Assembly: GCF_005871165.1 (NCBI RefSeq)
Contig: NZ_SWKP01000003.1
Span: 558,001 to 622,000 of the forward strand
From: Maricaulis alexandrii
Lineage (GTDB): Bacteria; Pseudomonadota; Alphaproteobacteria; Caulobacterales; Maricaulaceae
Direction of reading: 5' to 3'
Length of the DNA stretch: 64,000 bases
In this document: positions 3,603-46,594 of the stretch, piece by piece
Position numbering within the stretch: the first letter of the stretch is position 1
Layout: each line of letters begins with the position of its first letter
Notes under the pieces: model-generated
What the model was told of the DNA's origin: nothing
Databases searched by the model: none
Seen by the model: the letters and a program-made list of their open reading frames with translations, nothing else
Translations under genes and position numbers: made by a program

Positions 3603-5486
3603 ATGTTGCACATCAATGACCTCACCTATCGCATCGAAGGGCGGATGCTGTTCGATCAGGCGACCCTCTTCCTGCCCGCCAAAACGCGGATGGGTCTGGT
3701 GGGGCGCAATGGCACGGGCAAGTCCACCCTGTTCCGCCTGATCCGGGGCGAGATCACGCCGGAAAGCGGCGATGCCCGCGTGCAGAAAGGCGCCCGCATC
3801 GGCTGGGTCGCCCAGGAAGCGCCGGGCGGTGATGAAAGCCTGATGGATGTGGTTCTGGCCGCCGATACCGAGCGGGCCGCCCTTCTGGTGGAAGCGGAAA
3901 CTGCCACCGATCCCCACCGGATTGCCGAGATCCAGACCCGCCTGGCCGATATCGAAAGCCATACGGCCGAAGCCCGCGCCGGCTCCATCCTGTCGGGTCT
4001 GGGCTTTACAGGCGAGGAACAACGCCGGCCCTGCCGGGAATTCTCCGGCGGATGGCGCATGCGTGTGGCGCTGGCCGCCACCCTGTTTGCCCGGCCGGAC
4101 TGTCTCCTGCTGGACGAGCCGACCAACTATCTCGACCTGGAAGGCGTGATGTGGCTGCAGACCTATCTGCGCAGCTTCCCCGGTGCCGTCCTGGTGATCT
4201 CGCACGACCGCGACCTCTTGAACGGGTCGATGCAGAAGATCGCCCATCTCAAGGATGGCAAGCTGACCGTGTTCGACGGCGGCTATGATGATTTTGAGAA
4301 GGCGCTGGCGGAGAAACAGCGCTTGCAGATGAAGCTGGTCGAAAAACAGGAGGCCGAACGCCGGCATCTGCAGAGCTTCGTCGACCGGTTCAAGGCCAAG
4401 GCCTCCAAGGCCAAGCAGGCCCAATCGCGCGTGAAACGGCTGGAGAAGATGCAGGTCATCGCCACCCAGGTGGATGATCCGATCGCGCCTTTCGACTTTC
4501 CCAATCCGGAACGCCGCATGGCGCCGCCGATTGTGCGCATGCTGGACCTGGCCGTGGGCTATGAGCCGGACAAGCCGATCCTCAAGGGCGTCTCGCTCAA
4601 TATCGATCCGGATGACCGGATCGGCATTCTCGGCCGCAATGGGGCGGGCAAGTCCACCCTGGCGAAACTCCTCAATGACAAGCTGGAGCCTAGCGAGGGC
4701 TTCCTGAGGAAGCACAAGAAGCTGCAGATCGCCTTCTTCGCCCAGCACCAGATCGAGCATCTCTCCCCGGAAGTGTCCGCCTATCAGCATGTGATCGAGC
4801 TGATGCCGGATGCAACCGAGGCCCAGCGCCGGGCGCGTCTGGCGCGTTTCGGCCTGCCCGGCGATCGCCAGGAGACGCCGGCCAAACACCTCTCCGGCGG
4901 CGAAAAGGCACGTCTCCTGTTCAACCTGATCACCTTCGAGGGTCCGCACCTGCTGATCCTCGACGAACCGACCAACCACCTCGACATGGACAGTCGCGCC
5001 GCCCTGATCTCCGCGATCAACACCTATGAGGGTGCCGTCGTGCTGATCTCCCACGACCGGCATCTGATCGAAACCTGTGTCGACCGGCTCTGGGTCGTGG
5101 GCGACGGCACCGTCAAACAATATGACGACGATATCGAGACCTACCGGCAGAGCCTGCTCGGCCGGGTTCAACGCGAACCCAATGCCAAGAAGAAGGCCGC
5201 TCCGCCGGACGAGAAGACCCAGCGCCGCCGCGACAAGGCCGTCCAGCGCGAAGCCCTCAAACCCATCAAGGCCGAGATCGCCCGCTGGGAAAAGGAAGCC
5301 GACCGCCTGCGCGGCGTCATCGAGGTGATCGACAAGGGTCTGTCAGCGCCGGGGCTGTATGAGAAGGATCCGAAGACCGCGACGGACCTCCAGATCAAGC
5401 GCGCCAAGGCTGTGGACCTGCTGGATACGGCCGAGATGAACTGGCTGGAGGCGGAGGAGCGGTTGGAAGCGGCGCAGGCAGATTAG
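3603..5486 (+). CDS. ABC-F family ATPase (Uup/YheS-like)
   Basis: A 627-residue soluble protein of two ABC ATPase domains and no membrane segments, the ABC-F architecture of ribosome-associated translation factors. The first domain has GRNGTGKST at 34-42, FSGGWRMR and LLLDEPTNYLD near 170. The second has GRNGAGKST near 342, LSGGEKAR and LILDEPTNHLD near 453. A basic linker rich in Lys and Ala (about 235-290) matches the P-site tRNA-interaction motif. The last 100 residues form a charged coiled coil. It stands alone, divergent from the metalloprotease. It probably acts on stalled ribosomes; which ABC-F subfamily is not settled. Confidence 0.9.
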   Translation: MLHINDLTYRIEGRMLFDQATLFLPAKTRMGLVGRNGTGKSTLFRLIRGEITPESGDARVQKGARIGWVAQEAPGGDESLMDVVLAADTERAALLVEAETATDPHRIAEIQTRLADIESHTAEARAGSILSGLGFTGEEQRRPCREFSGGWRMRVALAATLFARPDCLLLDEPTNYLDLEGVMWLQTYLRSFPGAVLVISHDRDLLNGSMQKIAHLKDGKLTVFDGGYDDFEKALAEKQRLQMKLVEKQEAERRHLQSFVDRFKAKASKAKQAQSRVKRLEKMQVIATQVDDPIAPFDFPNPERRMAPPIVRMLDLAVGYEPDKPILKGVSLNIDPDDRIGILGRNGAGKSTLAKLLNDKLEPSEGFLRKHKKLQIAFFAQHQIEHLSPEVSAYQHVIELMPDATEAQRRARLARFGLPGDRQETPAKHLSGGEKARLLFNLITFEGPHLLILDEPTNHLDMDSRAALISAINTYEGAVVLISHDRHLIETCVDRLWVVGDGTVKQYDDDIETYRQSLLGRVQREPNAKKKAAPPDEKTQRRRDKAVQREALKPIKAEIARWEKEADRLRGVIEVIDKGLSAPGLYEKDPKTATDLQIKRAKAVDLLDTAEMNWLEAEERLEAAQAD

Positions 5487-29136: not shown

Positions 29137-29358
29137 GGTGTCCTTGCCCAGAACCCTGATAGGTCCTGTTTAGGCGAAACACGGCGCCCGGGGAATGTTC
29201 AGCGCCTGAGGCGCGAGCCAGAAGACACGCTGCCCGCTCAAGTCTCCGTGCCGGATCGGGGCTGCATCCCCCCTGTTTTCCGGAGGCGACGCAGGGTAAG
29301 GACTCTTTTTGTCGCCCTGCCCGATTAGAACGCACGGGGCTAGAAGGAGACGAACACC

Positions 29359-40967: not shown

Positions 40968-41309
40968 CTAGGTCAGACGGCGGGGCAGAACCACGGCGAC
41001 CATGCCGACGGCGACGGCCATGGCGGCGGCGGCCATGACTTCCGGGGACATGAGGAAAGCCGCATTGGCCAGGAGGCCCTCCGTGGGCAGGTTCACATTG
41101 CCGAACAGGCCTTCCAGCTGGGTGCCGGCGATGGCGGAGCCCGTGGAGCCGGCACCGCCGAGGATCAGGACGCGCTTGCGGTCCGGATTGGACAGGCGGT
41201 CCATCACCGTCTTGGTGAAGCGGTCCGCCTCGCTCTCGCGCTCCAGCGGGGCTGTGGCGTCGGCAAAGGCCGCCTTCAGCCTCTGATCGAATGCATCATC
41301 CATCGTCAT
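40968..41309 (-). CDS. Putative anti-sigma factor, module B
   Basis: A 113-residue protein. The cytoplasmic N-terminus (about 1-45: AAFADATAPLER, then DRFTKTVMDRL) is followed by two weakly hydrophobic segments (about 48-66 and 84-108). It matches the N-terminus of the module A protein in the order AAF-x-A..P..D-x-F-x-x-x-VM. The start overlaps the ECF sigma stop by 4 nt (ATGA), so it is coupled to the sigma gene. Position and membrane topology suggest an anti-sigma factor, but no ZAS zinc motif (HxxxCxxC) is present. Repression is inferred from context only. Confidence 0.65.
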   Translation of the reverse strand: MTMDDAFDQRLKAAFADATAPLERESEADRFTKTVMDRLSNPDRKRVLILGGAGSTGSAIAGTQLEGLFGNVNLPTEGLLANAAFLMSPEVMAAAAMAVAVGMVAVVLPRRLT

Positions 41310-41848
41310 GACGCCATTACCTCTGCTTCCTGGAAGTAGGCCTGCAATTTGGCCCTTCCGCGGTTCACATGCGACTTCACCGTTCCCAGCGGCATGCCGG
41401 TGGCTTCGGCCGCTTCGGAGTGTGACATTCCACAAGAGTAACACATCACAACCAGCGTGCGTTCCTCTTCTTTCAATGTGGCCAGTCCGCGATCCAGATC
41501 AACCACACTCCCCATATCGCGGGGCGCTTCGGTGTCTTCAACACCGGTCTGGAACTTCTCCATCACCCGTTCGGTCGATTTGCGCTTGCGCGCCGACTTC
41601 AGGAACTCGGTATAGGCGATGGAACACATCCAGGACTTGAAGGAGCCGGTTCCCTTGAAGCTCCCGATCTTCTCATAGGCGCGGATGAAGGTGTCCTGCG
41701 CCAGGTCATCCGCGAGGGCATGGTTGCGGCACATGCGCTGCAGCATTCCTCGCACGATGCCCTGATGGCGCCGGACAAGCTCTCCGAAGGCCGCCGGATT
41801 TTTCGTGGCGACAACCAGAGCAACCAATTCTTCGTCCGGCGCCTGCAT
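41306..41848 (-). CDS. ECF RNA polymerase sigma factor, module B
   Basis: A 180-residue ECF sigma factor with region 2 (LVRRHQGIVRGMLQRMCRN, ADDLAQDTFIRAYEKIGSF, FKSWMCSIAYTEFL) and region 4 (LKEEERTLVVMCYSCGMSHSEAAEATGMPLGTVKSHVNRGRAKL). The ATG at 41848 follows GGGGA; the longer open frame runs antisense into the neighbour. It is downstream of a DUF6249-like gene and coupled to a two-helix protein. The conserved promoter-like site 5' of module B is a likely target of this factor or its paralogue. Confidence 0.9.
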   Translation of the reverse strand: MQAPDEELVALVVATKNPAAFGELVRRHQGIVRGMLQRMCRNHALADDLAQDTFIRAYEKIGSFKGTGSFKSWMCSIAYTEFLKSARKRKSTERVMEKFQTGVEDTEAPRDMGSVVDLDRGLATLKEEERTLVVMCYSCGMSHSEAAEATGMPLGTVKSHVNRGRAKLQAYFQEAEVMAS

Positions 41849-41873
41849 GGACCGATCCCCTCCCCGGCTCGAC

Positions 41874-42251
41874 CTAGTCGGACTTCTTGTTGCCCAGCAG
41901 GCCGAAGCCCAGCAGGACGAGACCGATGAAGCCCGGGAAAGCCGACATGCCCAGGAAGACCTGGAAGGCCTCTTCTTCGCCCGCCATCGTACCGATGGTC
42001 CAGCCAAACACGATCATGGCCAGGGCGACCGCAATCAGGATACCGCCGGACTTCAGATCGCCGTTGGAATTCTTTTGCGGCATGCCCAGCGCGCGGATCG
42101 TTTCCGGGGTCATTTGCTGACCGGCGCGGATTGCCTCCTGAACCGTGGCCAGGATCGCCTTGCGCTTTTGAATACCGCCATTGACGGCGATGAAGACGAT
42201 CAGGACGACCATCGCGAACAGGCCCGTCGGGACGAGAACTTCTACTCCCAT
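41874..42251 (-). CDS. DUF6249-like membrane protein, module B
   Basis: A 125-residue protein: one membrane helix near the N-terminus (6-27), a cytosolic stretch (IQKRKAILATVQEAIRAGQQMTPETIRALG) and two helices at the C-terminus. The middle motif, a helix followed by [GQ]-x-x-x-P-E/S-x-[IL], is shared with the module A protein (YTAAGKEPPSELLASLD). It resembles DUF6249 proteins often found with sigma factors. A strong Shine-Dalgarno GGAGG precedes the ATG. Possible sensor or signal-transmitting partner; unproved. Confidence 0.7.
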   Translation of the reverse strand: MGVEVLVPTGLFAMVVLIVFIAVNGGIQKRKAILATVQEAIRAGQQMTPETIRALGMPQKNSNGDLKSGGILIAVALAMIVFGWTIGTMAGEEEAFQVFLGMSAFPGFIGLVLLGFGLLGNKKSD

Positions 42252-42294
42252 TTCAACCTCCGTTACCGACCGCACCATGCGGCCTTTGTCCCCT

Positions 42295-42323
42295 AGATGC
42301 ACGGGGTTCAGGAATTGGATGCA
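42295..42323 (-). promoter_or_regulatory. Candidate ECF-type promoter, module B
   Basis: On the minus strand TGCATCC (42323-42317), 16 bases, then GCATCT (42300-42295), then GGGACAAAGG. The same arrangement with the same spacing stands before module A. A 16-bp spacer is normal for ECF promoters. The site starts 6 bases from the NnrU stop. Confidence 0.55.
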
Positions 42324-42328
42324 GCGAT

Positions 42329-42886
42329 TTAGCCGATAATCGCGACACCAAACAGATACATGTGCAAATTCATGAGGATAAGCGAGACAAGAACGCCCAG
42401 GACAATCGCAGTCAGATCCCCGCCCCAGCCTTTCACGACCGGCGGCGGCGTCTCGCGCAGACAGGCTGCAACGAAGGTGATCGCCGACCAGGCCAGGAAG
42501 CTGCCGAACAGGATCAGGGCGGCCAGCTCGCCATTGGCCAGGAAATGGGCCCCGGACCACAGGACGACACCGGCCAGCATGGGGTGACGCACCCAGCGGC
42601 GGATATGGCCCGGCGCGTAGGAGGACACGATCAGGATCAGGCCGATGGGCACGAGTGTGAAAGCGAGATGCCGGGTCCAGGCCGGCGGTACCCAGACCAC
42701 CTCACTGGGGTGGGCCAGGATCTTGCCGTAGATGATCAGGCCGAAGCCGACCAGGGACAGCGCGGTATAGACCAGCTTGTAGGGGGTTTCCCCGAGCTGC
42801 GCCTGGAGGCCGCTGCGCGCCCCCGGGATCACACGCAGAAAATGCACGCCAAGAAACAGGACAAGCCCGGCAATCAGGACCAGCAT
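42329..42886 (-). CDS. NnrU family membrane protein
   Basis: A 185-residue protein with five to six membrane helices. LVLFLGVHFLRVIPGARSGL at the start and IRRWVRHPMLAGVVLWSGAHFLANGE in the middle are NnrU signatures and also recall isoprenylcysteine methyltransferase-like proteins. NnrU was named in denitrification, but most members have no proven role. GGGAGG precedes the ATG. It lies between the two ECF modules on the same strand, so module A could be read through it. Confidence 0.85.
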   Translation of the reverse strand: MLVLIAGLVLFLGVHFLRVIPGARSGLQAQLGETPYKLVYTALSLVGFGLIIYGKILAHPSEVVWVPPAWTRHLAFTLVPIGLILIVSSYAPGHIRRWVRHPMLAGVVLWSGAHFLANGELAALILFGSFLAWSAITFVAACLRETPPPVVKGWGGDLTAIVLGVLVSLILMNLHMYLFGVAIIG

Positions 42887-42964
42887 GGACGCCTCCCCTC
42901 CATTTTGTCCTGACTATAGACGATTCATTCCGGCATGACGGACAAAACGTCCGGCGGCTCCGGC

Positions 42965-43312
42965 TCAGAAAATCCGGAAACGGCGCCAGCGCAGGAGCGG
43001 CCTGTCAGGATTGCGGCGCAGCCAGGCCTGGCCGGCATAGGCCACCAAGCCGGTGACCAGCAGCACCACCAGCAGCTCCAGCAAGGGCGCCCCCAGCGAA
43101 ACGGCCAGCTGGTCGATGACCGGCATGAGCAGGCCGGCCAGCACAACGAGACCCGCCAGAACAGCGGCGCGGACGGCCAGGCCGATGCGGAAACGGCGGC
43201 GGGCAACAGCCTCCATCACCTCGATCCGGAAAGCCGGGTCGACGGACGGCACCTCTCCCGCCTGGAAGAAGGCGGCGAGTGGATCGGTTTGCTGTTCGGG
43301 TTCGCGTGTCAT
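42965..43312 (-). CDS. Putative anti-sigma factor, module A
   Basis: A 115-residue protein: cytoplasmic N-terminus (LAAFFQAGEVPSVDPAFRIEVMEAVARRRFRIG), then two membrane helices (about 44-65 and 70-92) and a basic C-terminal tail. The N-terminal pattern matches the module B homologue. The start overlaps the sigma stop by 4 nt (ATGA). No zinc-binding HxxxCxxC motif. Anti-sigma role is inferred from position. Confidence 0.65.
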   Translation of the reverse strand: MTREPEQQTDPLAAFFQAGEVPSVDPAFRIEVMEAVARRRFRIGLAVRAAVLAGLVVLAGLLMPVIDQLAVSLGAPLLELLVVLLVTGLVAYAGQAWLRRNPDRPLLRWRRFRIF

Positions 43313-43839
43313 CCGCTCACTCCAAGGATCTCCATCAGCCGGGTGCGTCCCCGGCTGACATGGGATTTTACCGTACCCAGCGGCATTTCCAAGACTTGGG
43401 CCGCGTCGGCATGGGTCCAGCCGCCCGCCAGACACAGGGCCACGGCGGCGCGCTGGTCTTCGGGCAGCCGGGTCAGGGCCTGCTGCATGGCCAGATGCAT
43501 GTCACGATCCGGGCTCTCGGCCTGATCCTGAACGTCATGCCAGGCCTGGTCCCGATTGCGGCGGCGCGCCATGGAGCGGGCCGTCATCTTCGACTGCCGC
43601 CAGGCAATCCCGAACAACCAGGATTTCAGCTTGCGGCCATCATCCAGCAGGCGCAGCCGGGTCCAGGCGGTCAGAAAGACCTCCTGGGCGATGTCGTCGG
43701 CATCGGACTCATAGACGCAGATCCGCCGCAAGAAGCTGCGGACCGGCGACTGGTAACGGTCGACGATCCGCGCGAAGGCTGCGTCCGAGCCCGACCGGGC
43801 CGCCGCGACCAGCGCAGCGTCCGTGGGCTGCCCGGTCAT
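43309..43839 (-). CDS. ECF RNA polymerase sigma factor, module A
   Basis: A 176-residue ECF sigma factor: region 2 (FARIVDRYQSPVRSFLRRIC, ADDIAQEVFLTAWTRLRLL, LKSWLFGIAWRQSKM) and region 4 (ALTRLPEDQRAAVALCLAGGWTHADAAQVLEMPLGTVKSHVSRGRTRLMEIL). The stop of the upstream DUF6249-like gene shares a base with its start (TGATG). Region 2.4 and 4.2 helices resemble those of the module B factor, so overlapping promoter choice is plausible. Confidence 0.92.
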   Translation of the reverse strand: MTGQPTDAALVAAARSGSDAAFARIVDRYQSPVRSFLRRICVYESDADDIAQEVFLTAWTRLRLLDDGRKLKSWLFGIAWRQSKMTARSMARRRNRDQAWHDVQDQAESPDRDMHLAMQQALTRLPEDQRAAVALCLAGGWTHADAAQVLEMPLGTVKSHVSRGRTRLMEILGVSG

Positions 43840-44255
43840 CAGTCGTGCCGGCGACGCTTGCCCTTGAACAGGCCGCCGACCAGGAAGGCCAGCGACAGCA
43901 CGCCCAGGATCATGGCAACGAAGTACAATTCCTCCCGGACATCGCCCAGCAGGCCGGCATAGCCGGCATAGGCGAACACGCCGGCCAGACCGGCAAACAG
44001 GATGACCAGGAAGGCGTTGGACGAGCTGCCATCGCCGCTGCCCCCGTCTTCCTCATGCCAGTCGTGGCGGCCATCGTCGGGCTTGTCGAGCGAGGCCAGG
44101 AGTTCGGACGGCGGCTCCTTGCCGGCGGCGGTGTAGGTCTTGATCAGGTCGATCTTGGACTGGTGGCGCTTGTAACGCATGAAACTGCCCCAGCCCGCAG
44201 CCACGAACCAGCCCAGCGGAAACAGCAGCCACCAATAATGAAACAGGAAATCCAT
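43839..44255 (-). CDS. DUF6249-like membrane protein, module A
   Basis: A 138-residue protein: N-terminal membrane helix (3-22), then a cytosolic segment with KIDLIKTYTAAGKEPPSELLASL, an acidic Gly/Ser linker and two helices at about 82-102 and 110-128. The layout matches the module B protein. The ATG at 44255 is chosen because the frame upstream continues into the promoter-like site and has no matching partner in module B. It is the first gene of module A and is coupled to the sigma gene. Confidence 0.7.
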   Translation of the reverse strand: MDFLFHYWWLLFPLGWFVAAGWGSFMRYKRHQSKIDLIKTYTAAGKEPPSELLASLDKPDDGRHDWHEEDGGSGDGSSSNAFLVILFAGLAGVFAYAGYAGLLGDVREELYFVAMILGVLSLAFLVGGLFKGKRRRHD

Positions 44256-44301: not shown

Positions 44302-44330
44302 AGTTGCCGCCGGATGCCGGTCTGGATGCA
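44302..44330 (-). promoter_or_regulatory. Candidate ECF-type promoter, module A
   Basis: On the minus strand TGCATCC (44330-44324), 16 bases, then GCAACT (44307-44302), then GGGACAAAGG. The spacing equals that of module B. The -35-like part lies inside an inverted repeat (CCGGTCT / AGACCGG, 44317-44340), which could bind a regulator. Confidence 0.55.
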
Positions 44331-45052: not shown

Positions 45053-46594
45053 TCATCCGCCCGCAGCGGGCGCGGCCAGCGCCGTGCGGACTTTCGGCAT
45101 GATGCGACGGCTGACCGGCACCTCCTCGCCCTGGGACAGGGTCAGGCGCCCCACCCCGCCGGCATCCCGCTCCAGCGCACTGACAAAAGCGGTATTCACG
45201 ATATGGGAGCGGTGCACGCGCAGGAAGGTTTCCGGCAGTTCGGCCTCCAGCCCGGCCAGCGTGCCGTTGAACAGGGCCGTGCGGCCGTCGGCATAGTGCA
45301 ACTCGACATAATCGCCCGCGCCCTTGAGCTGCACGATCCGGTCCGTGGAGACATATTCCACCCGCCCGGAACTGACGAGCTGCAGCTGGGCCGGTGCGGC
45401 CCGCTGGCGCGCTTCGGCCAGGGCGGTTTCCAGCCGGCTGGCCCGGGTCTGTTCCGCCAGCCGCTCCCGGCGCGCCCGCACCAGGGCCTGTGCCTGCCGG
45501 TAAAACAGGAAGAGCAGGATGCCGGCGCTGCCGACATAGAGATAGAGATCCAGGAAGCGGCCGCCGAAGATCGGGATCAGCACGGCCAGGCCGGCAAACA
45601 CGGCAAAATGACTGAAGGCGCCGGCCTTGCCGCGCAGGGCCCACCACAGGCTCCAGCCCGCCCCGTGCACCAGGGCGGCGAGCAGGGCGAACCCCGTCTT
45701 GCCGTCAAACCCGCTTGCCGTCGCGACAATGGCCAGCATGACCAAGGCCAGACCGGCGAGGATCAGGCTGCGCATGCGGGCCGAATAGCCGGACAGGGTC
45801 TTGAACAAATAGGCGTTGAGGCACAGCCCGAAGGCAAAGGCGAAGGCGACAATCGCCATGAGGCGGATGTCATGCACGGGATAGGGATAGGCGAACACGC
45901 CGCGCGAGACTTCCCAGACGAGCTGTCCCCCGGCACAGAAAGAGGCCAGGGCCAGGATGACCGAGCTTTCCCGCGCCTCGCCCCGCCACGCCATCACACC
46001 GAAGAAGACCAGGCCCAGAACAAAGAAGCCCAGCGTCACCAGGGCCGGCCAGTAATGCATGGCGATCAGATCGGTCAGCTGCGTATAGGGGATCAGTCCG
46101 AGTGCATGCATGGGCGCATTCAGCCGGACATGGCTGTGATGGCCGGACAGGTGCAGGACAACGCGATTGCCCTCCGGCTGGAGCCAGGCCCGCGGGACAT
46201 AGAAGATCGCGTCCATCCGCCCCGGGATCTCCTCCCGGGCGCTGGCGCCGGGCTGGCCATTGCGCCCCAGGGCGTGCCCGTTGAGCCAGACTTCCGATGC
46301 CGCCTTGCCGGACAGGACCAGGCCCAACGGGGTACGGCCGGCCAGGTCTGTGTCACGAACCGGCAGGACGGTCTCGACCCAGAGCTCGCGATTCTGGGTG
46401 TCGAGTGAATACAGACCGGTCTGCTCGCAGTCCGGACCGTCGAACCGGTCAGGCCGGCCGCCATCGGGACCGGGCGGGCAGACAGTGAGAACCAGCCCGC
46501 CATGGGCGGCTGGCGGCTGGGCATCAGCCGGACTGCCGGACAGACCGGCAAACAGGAGCATGGCGCCAAGCGCCGACACGAAAAGCGATTTCAT
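45053..46594 (-). CDS. 7TM membrane receptor fused to a LytTR DNA-binding domain
   Basis: A 513-residue protein. Signal peptide (1-25), a beta-rich periplasmic domain (about 30-175), seven membrane helices (about 180-375), a coiled coil (about 380-410) and a LytTR domain at about 415-505 (LKGAGDYVELHYADGRTALFNGTL, FLRVHRSHIVNTAFV). No kinase or receiver domain, so it would sense outside and bind DNA directly from the membrane. It matches the 7TMR-DISM plan. Divergent from a secreted hydrolase 132 bp away, a possible target or co-regulated gene. Confidence 0.82.
   Translation of the reverse strand: MKSLFVSALGAMLLFAGLSGSPADAQPPAAHGGLVLTVCPPGPDGGRPDRFDGPDCEQTGLYSLDTQNRELWVETVLPVRDTDLAGRTPLGLVLSGKAASEVWLNGHALGRNGQPGASAREEIPGRMDAIFYVPRAWLQPEGNRVVLHLSGHHSHVRLNAPMHALGLIPYTQLTDLIAMHYWPALVTLGFFVLGLVFFGVMAWRGEARESSVILALASFCAGGQLVWEVSRGVFAYPYPVHDIRLMAIVAFAFAFGLCLNAYLFKTLSGYSARMRSLILAGLALVMLAIVATASGFDGKTGFALLAALVHGAGWSLWWALRGKAGAFSHFAVFAGLAVLIPIFGGRFLDLYLYVGSAGILLFLFYRQAQALVRARRERLAEQTRASRLETALAEARQRAAPAQLQLVSSGRVEYVSTDRIVQLKGAGDYVELHYADGRTALFNGTLAGLEAELPETFLRVHRSHIVNTAFVSALERDAGGVGRLTLSQGEEVPVSRRIMPKVRTALAAPAAGG

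What the first reader, a model, noticed from the sequence alone, without database searches (positions are those of the whole stretch)
40968..44255. Two tandem paralogous ECF-sigma modules with coupled membrane partners
Seen: two sets in the same order and strand, each DUF6249-like protein, ECF sigma, short two-helix protein. Module A is 44255-42965 and module B is 42251-40968, with an NnrU-family gene between. The sigma and the two-helix gene overlap by 4 nt in both. The two-helix proteins share AAF-x-A..P..D-x-F-x-x-x-VM but lack a ZAS zinc site, so they could be an undescribed type of membrane anti-sigma factor. Inference: signal passes from the DUF6249-like protein or the two-helix protein to the sigma factor, and the two modules may cross-regulate.
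Basis: partly seen in the sequence, partly recalled or inferred. Interest (0 to 1): 0.75.

Follow-up and report, generated by a model that had tools for sequence, protein, structure and literature searches.

The report
Duplicated membrane-linked sigma factor module
This stretch carries two sister copies of a three-gene bacterial signalling unit (a small membrane protein, a transcription switch and a second small membrane protein that probably holds the switch off), and one copy appears to control a set of cell-surface and secreted proteins.

Summary
Two D-S-T modules (DUF6249-type protein, ECF sigma, small membrane protein without a zinc site) lie in tandem in a Maricaulis-like genome, with NnrU between them. 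In the best 80 loci fetched by the sigma alone, 137 of 137 sigma genes have T beside them and 136 of 137 have D; the one miss is at a contig end. T and D are paralogous between modules. In 56 two-module loci, the S, D and T trees each need one change to separate first from second module: one whole-module duplication, no partner swapping. New here: module-specific promoter motifs before D. Both share a TGCATCC -35, but the -10 differs: A type in 42 of 90 D_A promoters, B type in 65 of 98 D_B, no crossover. In Maricaulis the B motif also marks a regulon that includes DUF2807 proteins, peptidases and an efflux operon; the A motif marks little beyond its own module. T is most likely a minimal, zinc-free membrane anti-sigma factor and D an accessory membrane part. 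Binding was not testable; coevolution was inconclusive. Promoter-level cross-regulation is not supported.

The parts
44303..44329 (-). Module A promoter-like element: -35 GCATCC, N15, -10 GGCAAC
   Evidence: G000:C1:602303-602329, one of 2 exact matches in the genome; same type in 42 of 90 D_A upstream regions
43839..44255 (-). D_A, DUF6249-like small membrane protein, 138 aa
   Evidence: PF19762 E 0.0058, under the cut-off; homologous to D_B by hhalign
43309..43839 (-). S_A, ECF sigma factor, 176 aa (start overlaps D_A stop by 1 nt)
   Evidence: Sigma70_r2 and Sigma70_r4_2
42965..43312 (-). T_A, putative zinc-free membrane anti-sigma factor, 115 aa (4-nt overlap with S_A)
   Evidence: no Pfam family above its cut-off
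42329..42886 (-). NnrU-family membrane protein between the modules; not part of the conserved unit
   Evidence: PF07298 E 1e-51; present in 9 of the 57 two-sigma loci of L081-L160
42294..42322 (-). Module B promoter-like element: -35 GCATCC, N16, -10 GCATCTA
   Evidence: G000:C1:600294-600322, one of 3 exact matches in the genome; same type in 65 of 98 D_B upstream regions
41874..42251 (-). D_B, DUF6249-type small membrane protein, 125 aa
   Evidence: (PF19762 E 1.1e-7, 32.2 bits against 33)
41306..41848 (-). S_B, ECF sigma factor, 180 aa
40968..41309 (-). T_B, putative zinc-free membrane anti-sigma factor, 113 aa (4-nt overlap with S_B)
   Evidence: no Pfam family

Best explanation
Each module is a self-contained, autoregulated ECF signalling unit. 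Shown by sequence: in the loci read, T and D are encoded with the sigma in the order D-S-T wherever the flank is long enough; all three appear to have duplicated together once and kept their partners; a module-specific promoter motif stands upstream of D in about half (A) to two thirds (B) of the cases; and in Maricaulis the B motif also stands upstream of secreted, envelope and efflux genes. Inferred: T is the anti-sigma factor. Its short (about 40 residues) zinc-free N-terminal segment, the only part shared by T_A and T_B, holds the sigma at the inner membrane. T is too small for a large periplasmic domain, so the signal is read in or at the membrane, probably with help from D (DUF6249). Release of the sigma switches on its own operon and, for B, an envelope-protection regulon. 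The two sigmas read the same -35 (TGCATCC) but different -10 elements, which keeps the sister circuits apart. Module A controls little beyond itself.
For: Conserved unit: 137 of 137 sigma genes with T and 136 of 137 with D in the best 80 of 378 sigma-selected relatives; 120 of 137 S/T pairs overlap by the start codons chosen in the script. Outside the order, 11 of 16 DUF6249 hits have an ECF sigma next, and 7 of those 11 a T recognised at E<0.01. First/second module label: 1 change on each of the S, D and T trees over 56 two-module loci. Promoters: A type 42 of 90 D_A, 0 of 98 D_B; B type 65 of 98 D_B, 0 of 90 D_A; base-shuffled upstream regions give about 0.01 (A) and 0.03 (B) per 188. B regulon: 129 matches in 13 Maricaulis genomes at spacing 16 against 396 over the ten other spacings from 11 to 21 (525 in all; Poisson p 2e-29). 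37 of 60 fetched sites precede genes of 11 homologous clusters seen in 2-5 of 6 genomes. 21 of 60 have an ORF of at least 200 aa starting 5-50 nt downstream, against 417 of 17,800 window positions and 548 of 28,400 random positions.
Against: No direct evidence of S-T binding. Direct-coupling analysis (189 modules, effective number 110) gave only a slight S-T excess (30 of 17,424 pairs above 4 sd against 21 of 21,120 for D-S and 12 of 11,880 for D-T), and its top pair sits in the gene overlap: inconclusive. T has no convincing sequence match among solved structures (best E 0.17 and 0.034, no anti-sigma factor). 24 of 90 D_A and 12 of 98 D_B upstream regions lack even GCATCY, and 24 and 21 have it without a recognised -10; the motif patterns were chosen by eye on this same set. 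A wide B regulon was not seen in Caulobacteraceae: 34 matches in 40 genomes, control 7. 23 of the 60 Maricaulis sites fall in no cluster, and two of the six genomes (G000, G063) are close, so agreement between those two is weak evidence. Four of the 11 sigma loci outside the order have a small membrane protein without significant T similarity.
Confidence: 0.72

Rival explanations
1. D (DUF6249), not T, is the anti-sigma factor or main negative regulator, through its basic cytosolic loop between the first and second membrane segments; T is a co-factor or sensor.
For: D is as tightly linked to the sigma as T (136 of 137), is conserved over more of its length than T (hhalign D_A-D_B 99.3% over 119 columns against T_A-T_B 96.5% over 53), and lies beside an ECF sigma in other families too.
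Against: D also occurs without a sigma gene beside it on the same strand (5 of 16 hits outside the order). Gene overlap with the sigma is mostly a T feature (120 of 137). The part of T kept between paralogues is its predicted cytosolic segment.
Confidence: 0.13
2. T and D are not regulators but co-expressed effectors (envelope proteins of the response); the sigma is controlled by its own transcription or by an unlinked anti-sigma factor.
For: The operon carries its own sigma-type promoter motif, so all three proteins would rise together. S-T coevolution is inconclusive.
Against: Complete linkage in the loci read, gene overlap, one co-duplication and no partner swapping are unusual for mere targets. 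The ten B-motif products scanned elsewhere in Maricaulis are not DUF6249 and look unlike T (unlike T by eye).
Confidence: 0.1
3. The TGCATCC motifs are sites of a classical transcription factor, and the sigma factors read other promoters.
For: The B motif is a near direct repeat (GCATCY-N16-GCATCW), which a dimeric activator could bind.
Against: The A motif has the same first half but an unrelated second half at 15 nt. Spacing and distance to the start codon fit -35/-10 elements, and each type follows its own sigma paralogue with no crossover.
Confidence: 0.05

Closest known systems
Class II anti-sigma factors (CnrY of Cupriavidus, NepR), as described in PMC8103513 (section '5. [quoted passage not shown]
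   Same: Short segment expected to bind an ECF sigma; CnrY's two helices wrap its sigma CnrH (PMC7406223, passages). That CnrY is zinc-free, membrane-anchored and encoded with its sigma is recalled.
   Different: No sequence match found; T has one to three predicted membrane segments and is paired with DUF6249. Binding is untested.
Class I anti-sigma factors (RseA, RsiW; many with the zinc ZAS motif)
   Same: Protein encoded beside an ECF sigma, often membrane-bound.
   Different: No HxxxCxxC in 190 T proteins, and a median of only 38.5 residues before the first hydrophobic segment; the class I survey removed domains under 50 residues as possible class II (PMC7406223, passages).
Bacillus subtilis SigY-YxlC/YxlD and SigM-YhdL/YhdK (recalled, no call)
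   Same: ECF sigma controlled by two small membrane proteins encoded beside it.
   Different: Both partners lie downstream there; no homology was tested here.
Sigma-linked Toastrack (DUF2807) contexts, PMC11237479 (passages read)
   Same: DUF2807 proteins tied to membrane-stress signalling, in one context with an operonically linked sigma factor.
   Different: There Toastrack is predicted to be intracellular and operon-linked; here the DUF2807 proteins are unlinked putative regulon members with signal-like N-termini (by eye).

Membership tests
ECF sigma factor (S_A, S_B) | Sigma regions 2 and 4 only, about 170-190 aa | tested here: met
   Pfam Sigma70_r2 and Sigma70_r4_2 above cut-off in both; 176 and 180 aa
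ECF sigma factor (S_A, S_B) | Operon under positive autoregulation by its own sigma (common but not universal) | tested here: inconclusive
   Module-specific promoter-like motifs upstream of D; dependence on the sigma not shown
DUF6249 (PF19762) (D_A, D_B) | Score above Pfam's gathering cut-off (33 bits) | tested here: not met
   D_B 32.2 bits, D_A 17 bits, so neither window protein passes on its own; kinship is nevertheless supported: 66 of 67 members of the D_B-type alignment match at E<=0.01 and D_A is homologous to D_B
ZAS-type anti-sigma factor (T) | HxxxCxxC zinc motif | tested here: not met
   0 of 190 distinct T proteins
[quoted passage not shown]
   Length and lack of zinc motif fit (median 38.5 residues before the first hydrophobic segment, range 28-99); no sequence match to solved chains
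[quoted passage not shown]
NnrU (PF07298) | Score above Pfam's cut-off | tested here: met
   175.7 bits against 24.7

The most novel reading that the evidence does not exclude
DUF6249-sigma-T is a widespread, so far unnamed class of ECF signalling system that works inside the bilayer: no zinc site, no periplasmic sensor domain, a T protein whose roughly 40-residue segment (F, then V and/or M four to five residues on) is a new minimal anti-sigma fold, and DUF6249 as its co-sensor. In Caulobacterales one whole-module duplication produced two sister sigmas that kept a common -35 and diverged at the -10, one serving mainly itself and the other running an envelope regulon in Maricaulis.
Probability: 0.42. 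Interest if true: 0.75.

Novelty: new variant of a known kind. Interest (0 to 1): 0.6.

Why it matters
It gives a likely role to an uncharacterised domain (DUF6249) and to a small membrane protein family with no Pfam entry that I could find. The module occurs in named Caulobacter loci (for example L095), and DUF6249 itself is over its cut-off in the Caulobacter vibrioides control genome (its neighbours there were not read), so a model organism is at hand. The work predicts promoter elements, a regulon and which sister sigma reads which promoter, all testable with simple reporters. It also offers a clean natural case of how a duplicated sigma circuit may become insulated: same -35, new -10, no partner exchange.

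Tried and rejected
Cross-regulation through shared promoters: not supported (0 crossovers in 107 typed promoters); the common -35 keeps weak crosstalk open.

Coevolution as proof of S-T contact: tried and left as inconclusive (one search stopped with an error after the matrix was saved; read out).

Other names for T: the holin hit of T_A is E 0.049, under the cut-off, in 1 of 80 T_A-type members. DUF5056 hits 4 of 80 T_A-type members, best E 6.7e-4, and 1 of 58 T_B-type; DUF1737 hits 7 of 58 T_B-type members, best E 0.0045. These are leads only.

radA as a member of the A regulon: an A-type site lies before a radA-like gene (named by eye) in the window (29264-29290), but no other A site parsed has such a gene as its longest downstream ORF, so it may be chance. 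Of 30 A sites in 13 genomes (control 7), 29 were parsed (L219 was not) and 9 precede D_A.

B regulon in Caulobacteraceae: my first pattern was wrongly specified and found 0 of 11 genomes; the corrected one found 34 matches in 22 of 40 genomes, control 7. No wide regulon is shown there.

In one search, 57 of the 60 sites had an ORF of at least 60 aa (37 clustered, 20 single).

Literature: one paper of the library holds DUF6249 and its title is on plant kinases (listing). The listings (titles and abstract starts; several capped far below the number found) showed me no description of this module. The 2021 ECF reclassification paper is not held, so the group may already be listed there.
Full report
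WHAT IS THERE. The window is part of a 3.35 Mb assembly. The best named relatives by S_A are Maricaulis records (60-73% identity), so I call the genome Maricaulis-like. On the - strand it carries D_A-S_A-T_A (44255-42965), NnrU (42886-42329) and D_B-S_B-T_B (42251-40968). Both S are ECF-type (regions 2 and 4). D is DUF6249-like, T matches no family above a cut-off, and NnrU is clear.

CONSERVATION. T_A was found in 44 and T_B in 49 of 200 genomes of the order at E<=0.01. Of the 46 and 51 matches, 30 each became loci; in all 60 a sigma of this family lies directly upstream (L047 and L079 are the same place). In these 80 loci 137 of 137 sigma genes of the family have T directly downstream and 136 of 137 have D directly upstream; the exception (L112) begins at the contig end. 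57 of the 80 hold at least two such sigma genes. Over all loci read (222 sigma genes, some genomes counted twice) T is missing in 14 cases, where the locus ends inside the sigma gene, and D in 3, where the locus begins at it. More distant sigma relatives were not read.

LAYOUT. In Caulobacter and Phenylobacterium loci such as L090, L117 and L088 the second D starts within about 170 nt of the first T; in some Brevundimonas loci (L093, L097, L137) about 0.9 kb lies between. NnrU lies between the modules in 9 of the 57 loci: seven named Maricaulis, one unnamed alphaproteobacterium and one Hyphobacterium. NnrU is thus a lineage-specific neighbour, not a part.

BEYOND THE ORDER. At E<=1e-4 DUF6249 was found in 29 of 398 Pseudomonadota genomes and, among 14 named controls, only in Caulobacter vibrioides and Bacteroides ihuae. 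Of 16 hits outside the order, 11 have an ECF sigma directly downstream. Seven of these 11 are followed by a protein that the Caulobacterales T profile recognises (E<0.01, small database) and 4 by another small membrane protein. Five hits have no such sigma beside them on the same strand. The context in the two control genomes could not be read.

HOMOLOGY AND HISTORY. Separate alignments of T_A and T_B match over about 53 N-terminal residues only (E 7.7e-10); D_A and D_B match over 119 columns (E 9.2e-21); four T-D controls do not match. On unrooted FastTree trees of S, D and T (136 rows each), the label first or second module, given by gene order in 56 two-module loci, needs exactly one change on each tree. 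The simplest history is one duplication of the whole unit before these genera diverged, with no later exchange of components. This is the strongest evidence that the three genes form one specific machine.

ANATOMY OF T. None of 190 distinct T proteins carries HxxxCxxC and 146 lack cysteine; the median length is 109, and a median of 38.5 residues (range 28-99) precede the first hydrophobic segment. The conserved core is an F followed by V and/or M at +4/+5, then basic residues. That the N-terminus is cytosolic is inferred from the basic residues before the first membrane segment. Proteins of this size and layout leave little room for a periplasmic domain, so the signal is probably read in or near the membrane, or by D. 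Both points are inference.

PROMOTERS. Upstream of D stands GCATCY-N15-GGCRAC in module A and GCATCY-N16-GCATCW (mainly Maricaulis and kin) or GCATCY-N17-CYTCT in module B. Of 188 distinct upstream regions, 42 of 90 D_A carry the A type and 65 of 98 D_B the B type, with none of the opposite type; 24 D_A and 21 D_B regions have only the first half, and 24 and 12 have neither. Base shuffling predicts about 0.01 and 0.03 per set, but the patterns were chosen by eye on the same regions, so the genome scans below are the better test. The simplest reading is a common -35 and a module-specific -10, each read by its own sigma. Which sigma reads which element is inferred from linkage.

REGULONS. In the window's genome the A pattern has 2 matches (D_A and a radA-like gene) and a strict B pattern 3 (D_B, a DUF2807 gene, an efflux operon). 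In 13 Maricaulis genomes (own included) GCATCY-N16-GCATCW has 129 matches, reversed-pattern control 0. The reversed control is imperfect because the order of bases differs, so I used other spacings: 525 matches at spacings 11-21 leave 396 for the ten others, 39.6 each, against 129 at 16 (p 2e-29). Of the 129 sites I fetched 60, in six genomes: all sites of those six but the D_B sites and two sites of one genome. 21 of 60 have an ORF of at least 200 aa starting 5-50 nt downstream, against 2.3% of 17,800 window positions and 1.9% of 28,400 random positions. 37 of 60 precede genes that fall into 11 homologous clusters present in 2-5 of the six genomes; in several clusters the spacer has diverged while the motif stayed. 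Two of the genomes (G000, G063) are close relatives, so agreement between those two alone is weak. The other 23 sites may be chance.

WHAT B CONTROLS. Pfam on 10 products: two DUF2807 proteins, an S41-type and an M1-type peptidase, an outer membrane efflux protein, a cupin protein, DUF5694, a bactofilin-like protein below its cut-off, and two without a family. The efflux gene begins a run with, by eye, a periplasmic adaptor and a 1072-aa RND-type transporter. At least six of the ten have signal-like N-termini by eye; no signal-peptide program was run. DUF2807 belongs to the Toastrack group tied to membrane stress (PMC11237479, passages read), although that paper predicts Toastrack to be intracellular. 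An envelope-stress role for S_B is the best reading. In Caulobacteraceae a fitting motif gives under one match per genome (34 in 40, control 7), so the wide regulon is shown for Maricaulis only. The A pattern gives 30 matches in 13 genomes (control 7); of 29 parsed, 9 are D_A. S_A therefore seems to serve mainly its own operon.

HOW IT MOST LIKELY WORKS. T holds S at the membrane until a membrane or envelope disturbance, perhaps read together with D, frees it; S then drives its own operon and, for B, the envelope set. The review PMC8103513 (part 1 of the section on regulation of ECF activity read) names class II anti-sigma domains such as CnrY and NepR that embrace the sigma; T would work like these. 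The class I survey PMC7406223 (passages read) removed anti-sigma domains under 50 residues, so proteins like T could have been dropped there. Membership in class II is not claimed: there is no sequence match and no structure.

LIMITS. Coupling analysis was inconclusive. The 2021 ECF reclassification could not be read, so the group may already be listed there; the only paper of the searched library that holds the word DUF6249 is on plant kinases by its title.

Noticed in passing
window 29264-29290 (+): An exact module-A-type promoter match lies 68 nt before the start of a radA-like gene (named by eye); no other A site parsed in the 13 Maricaulis genomes has such a gene as its longest downstream ORF.
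   Followed up: partly
L009 (G000:C6:549000-556500), 3649-4597, - strand: Another ECF sigma (194 aa) overlaps a 144-aa small membrane protein, close to an RpoH-like sigma gene (by eye): a second sigma/small-membrane-protein pair, apparently of another family.
   Followed up: no
L035, L036, L038, L040, L043 and others, upstream of D_A: Several Caulobacteraceae loci show an additional D_A-like match directly upstream of D_A (a duplicated or split D gene).
   Followed up: no
   Followed up: no
L307, L310, L311 downstream of the sigma: A 71-aa protein with one membrane segment overlaps the sigma gene where T would be: possibly a still smaller anti-sigma type.
   Followed up: partly
window 45053-46594 (-): A protein with several hydrophobic stretches (by eye) ending in a LytTR DNA-binding domain, two genes upstream of module A.
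   Followed up: no
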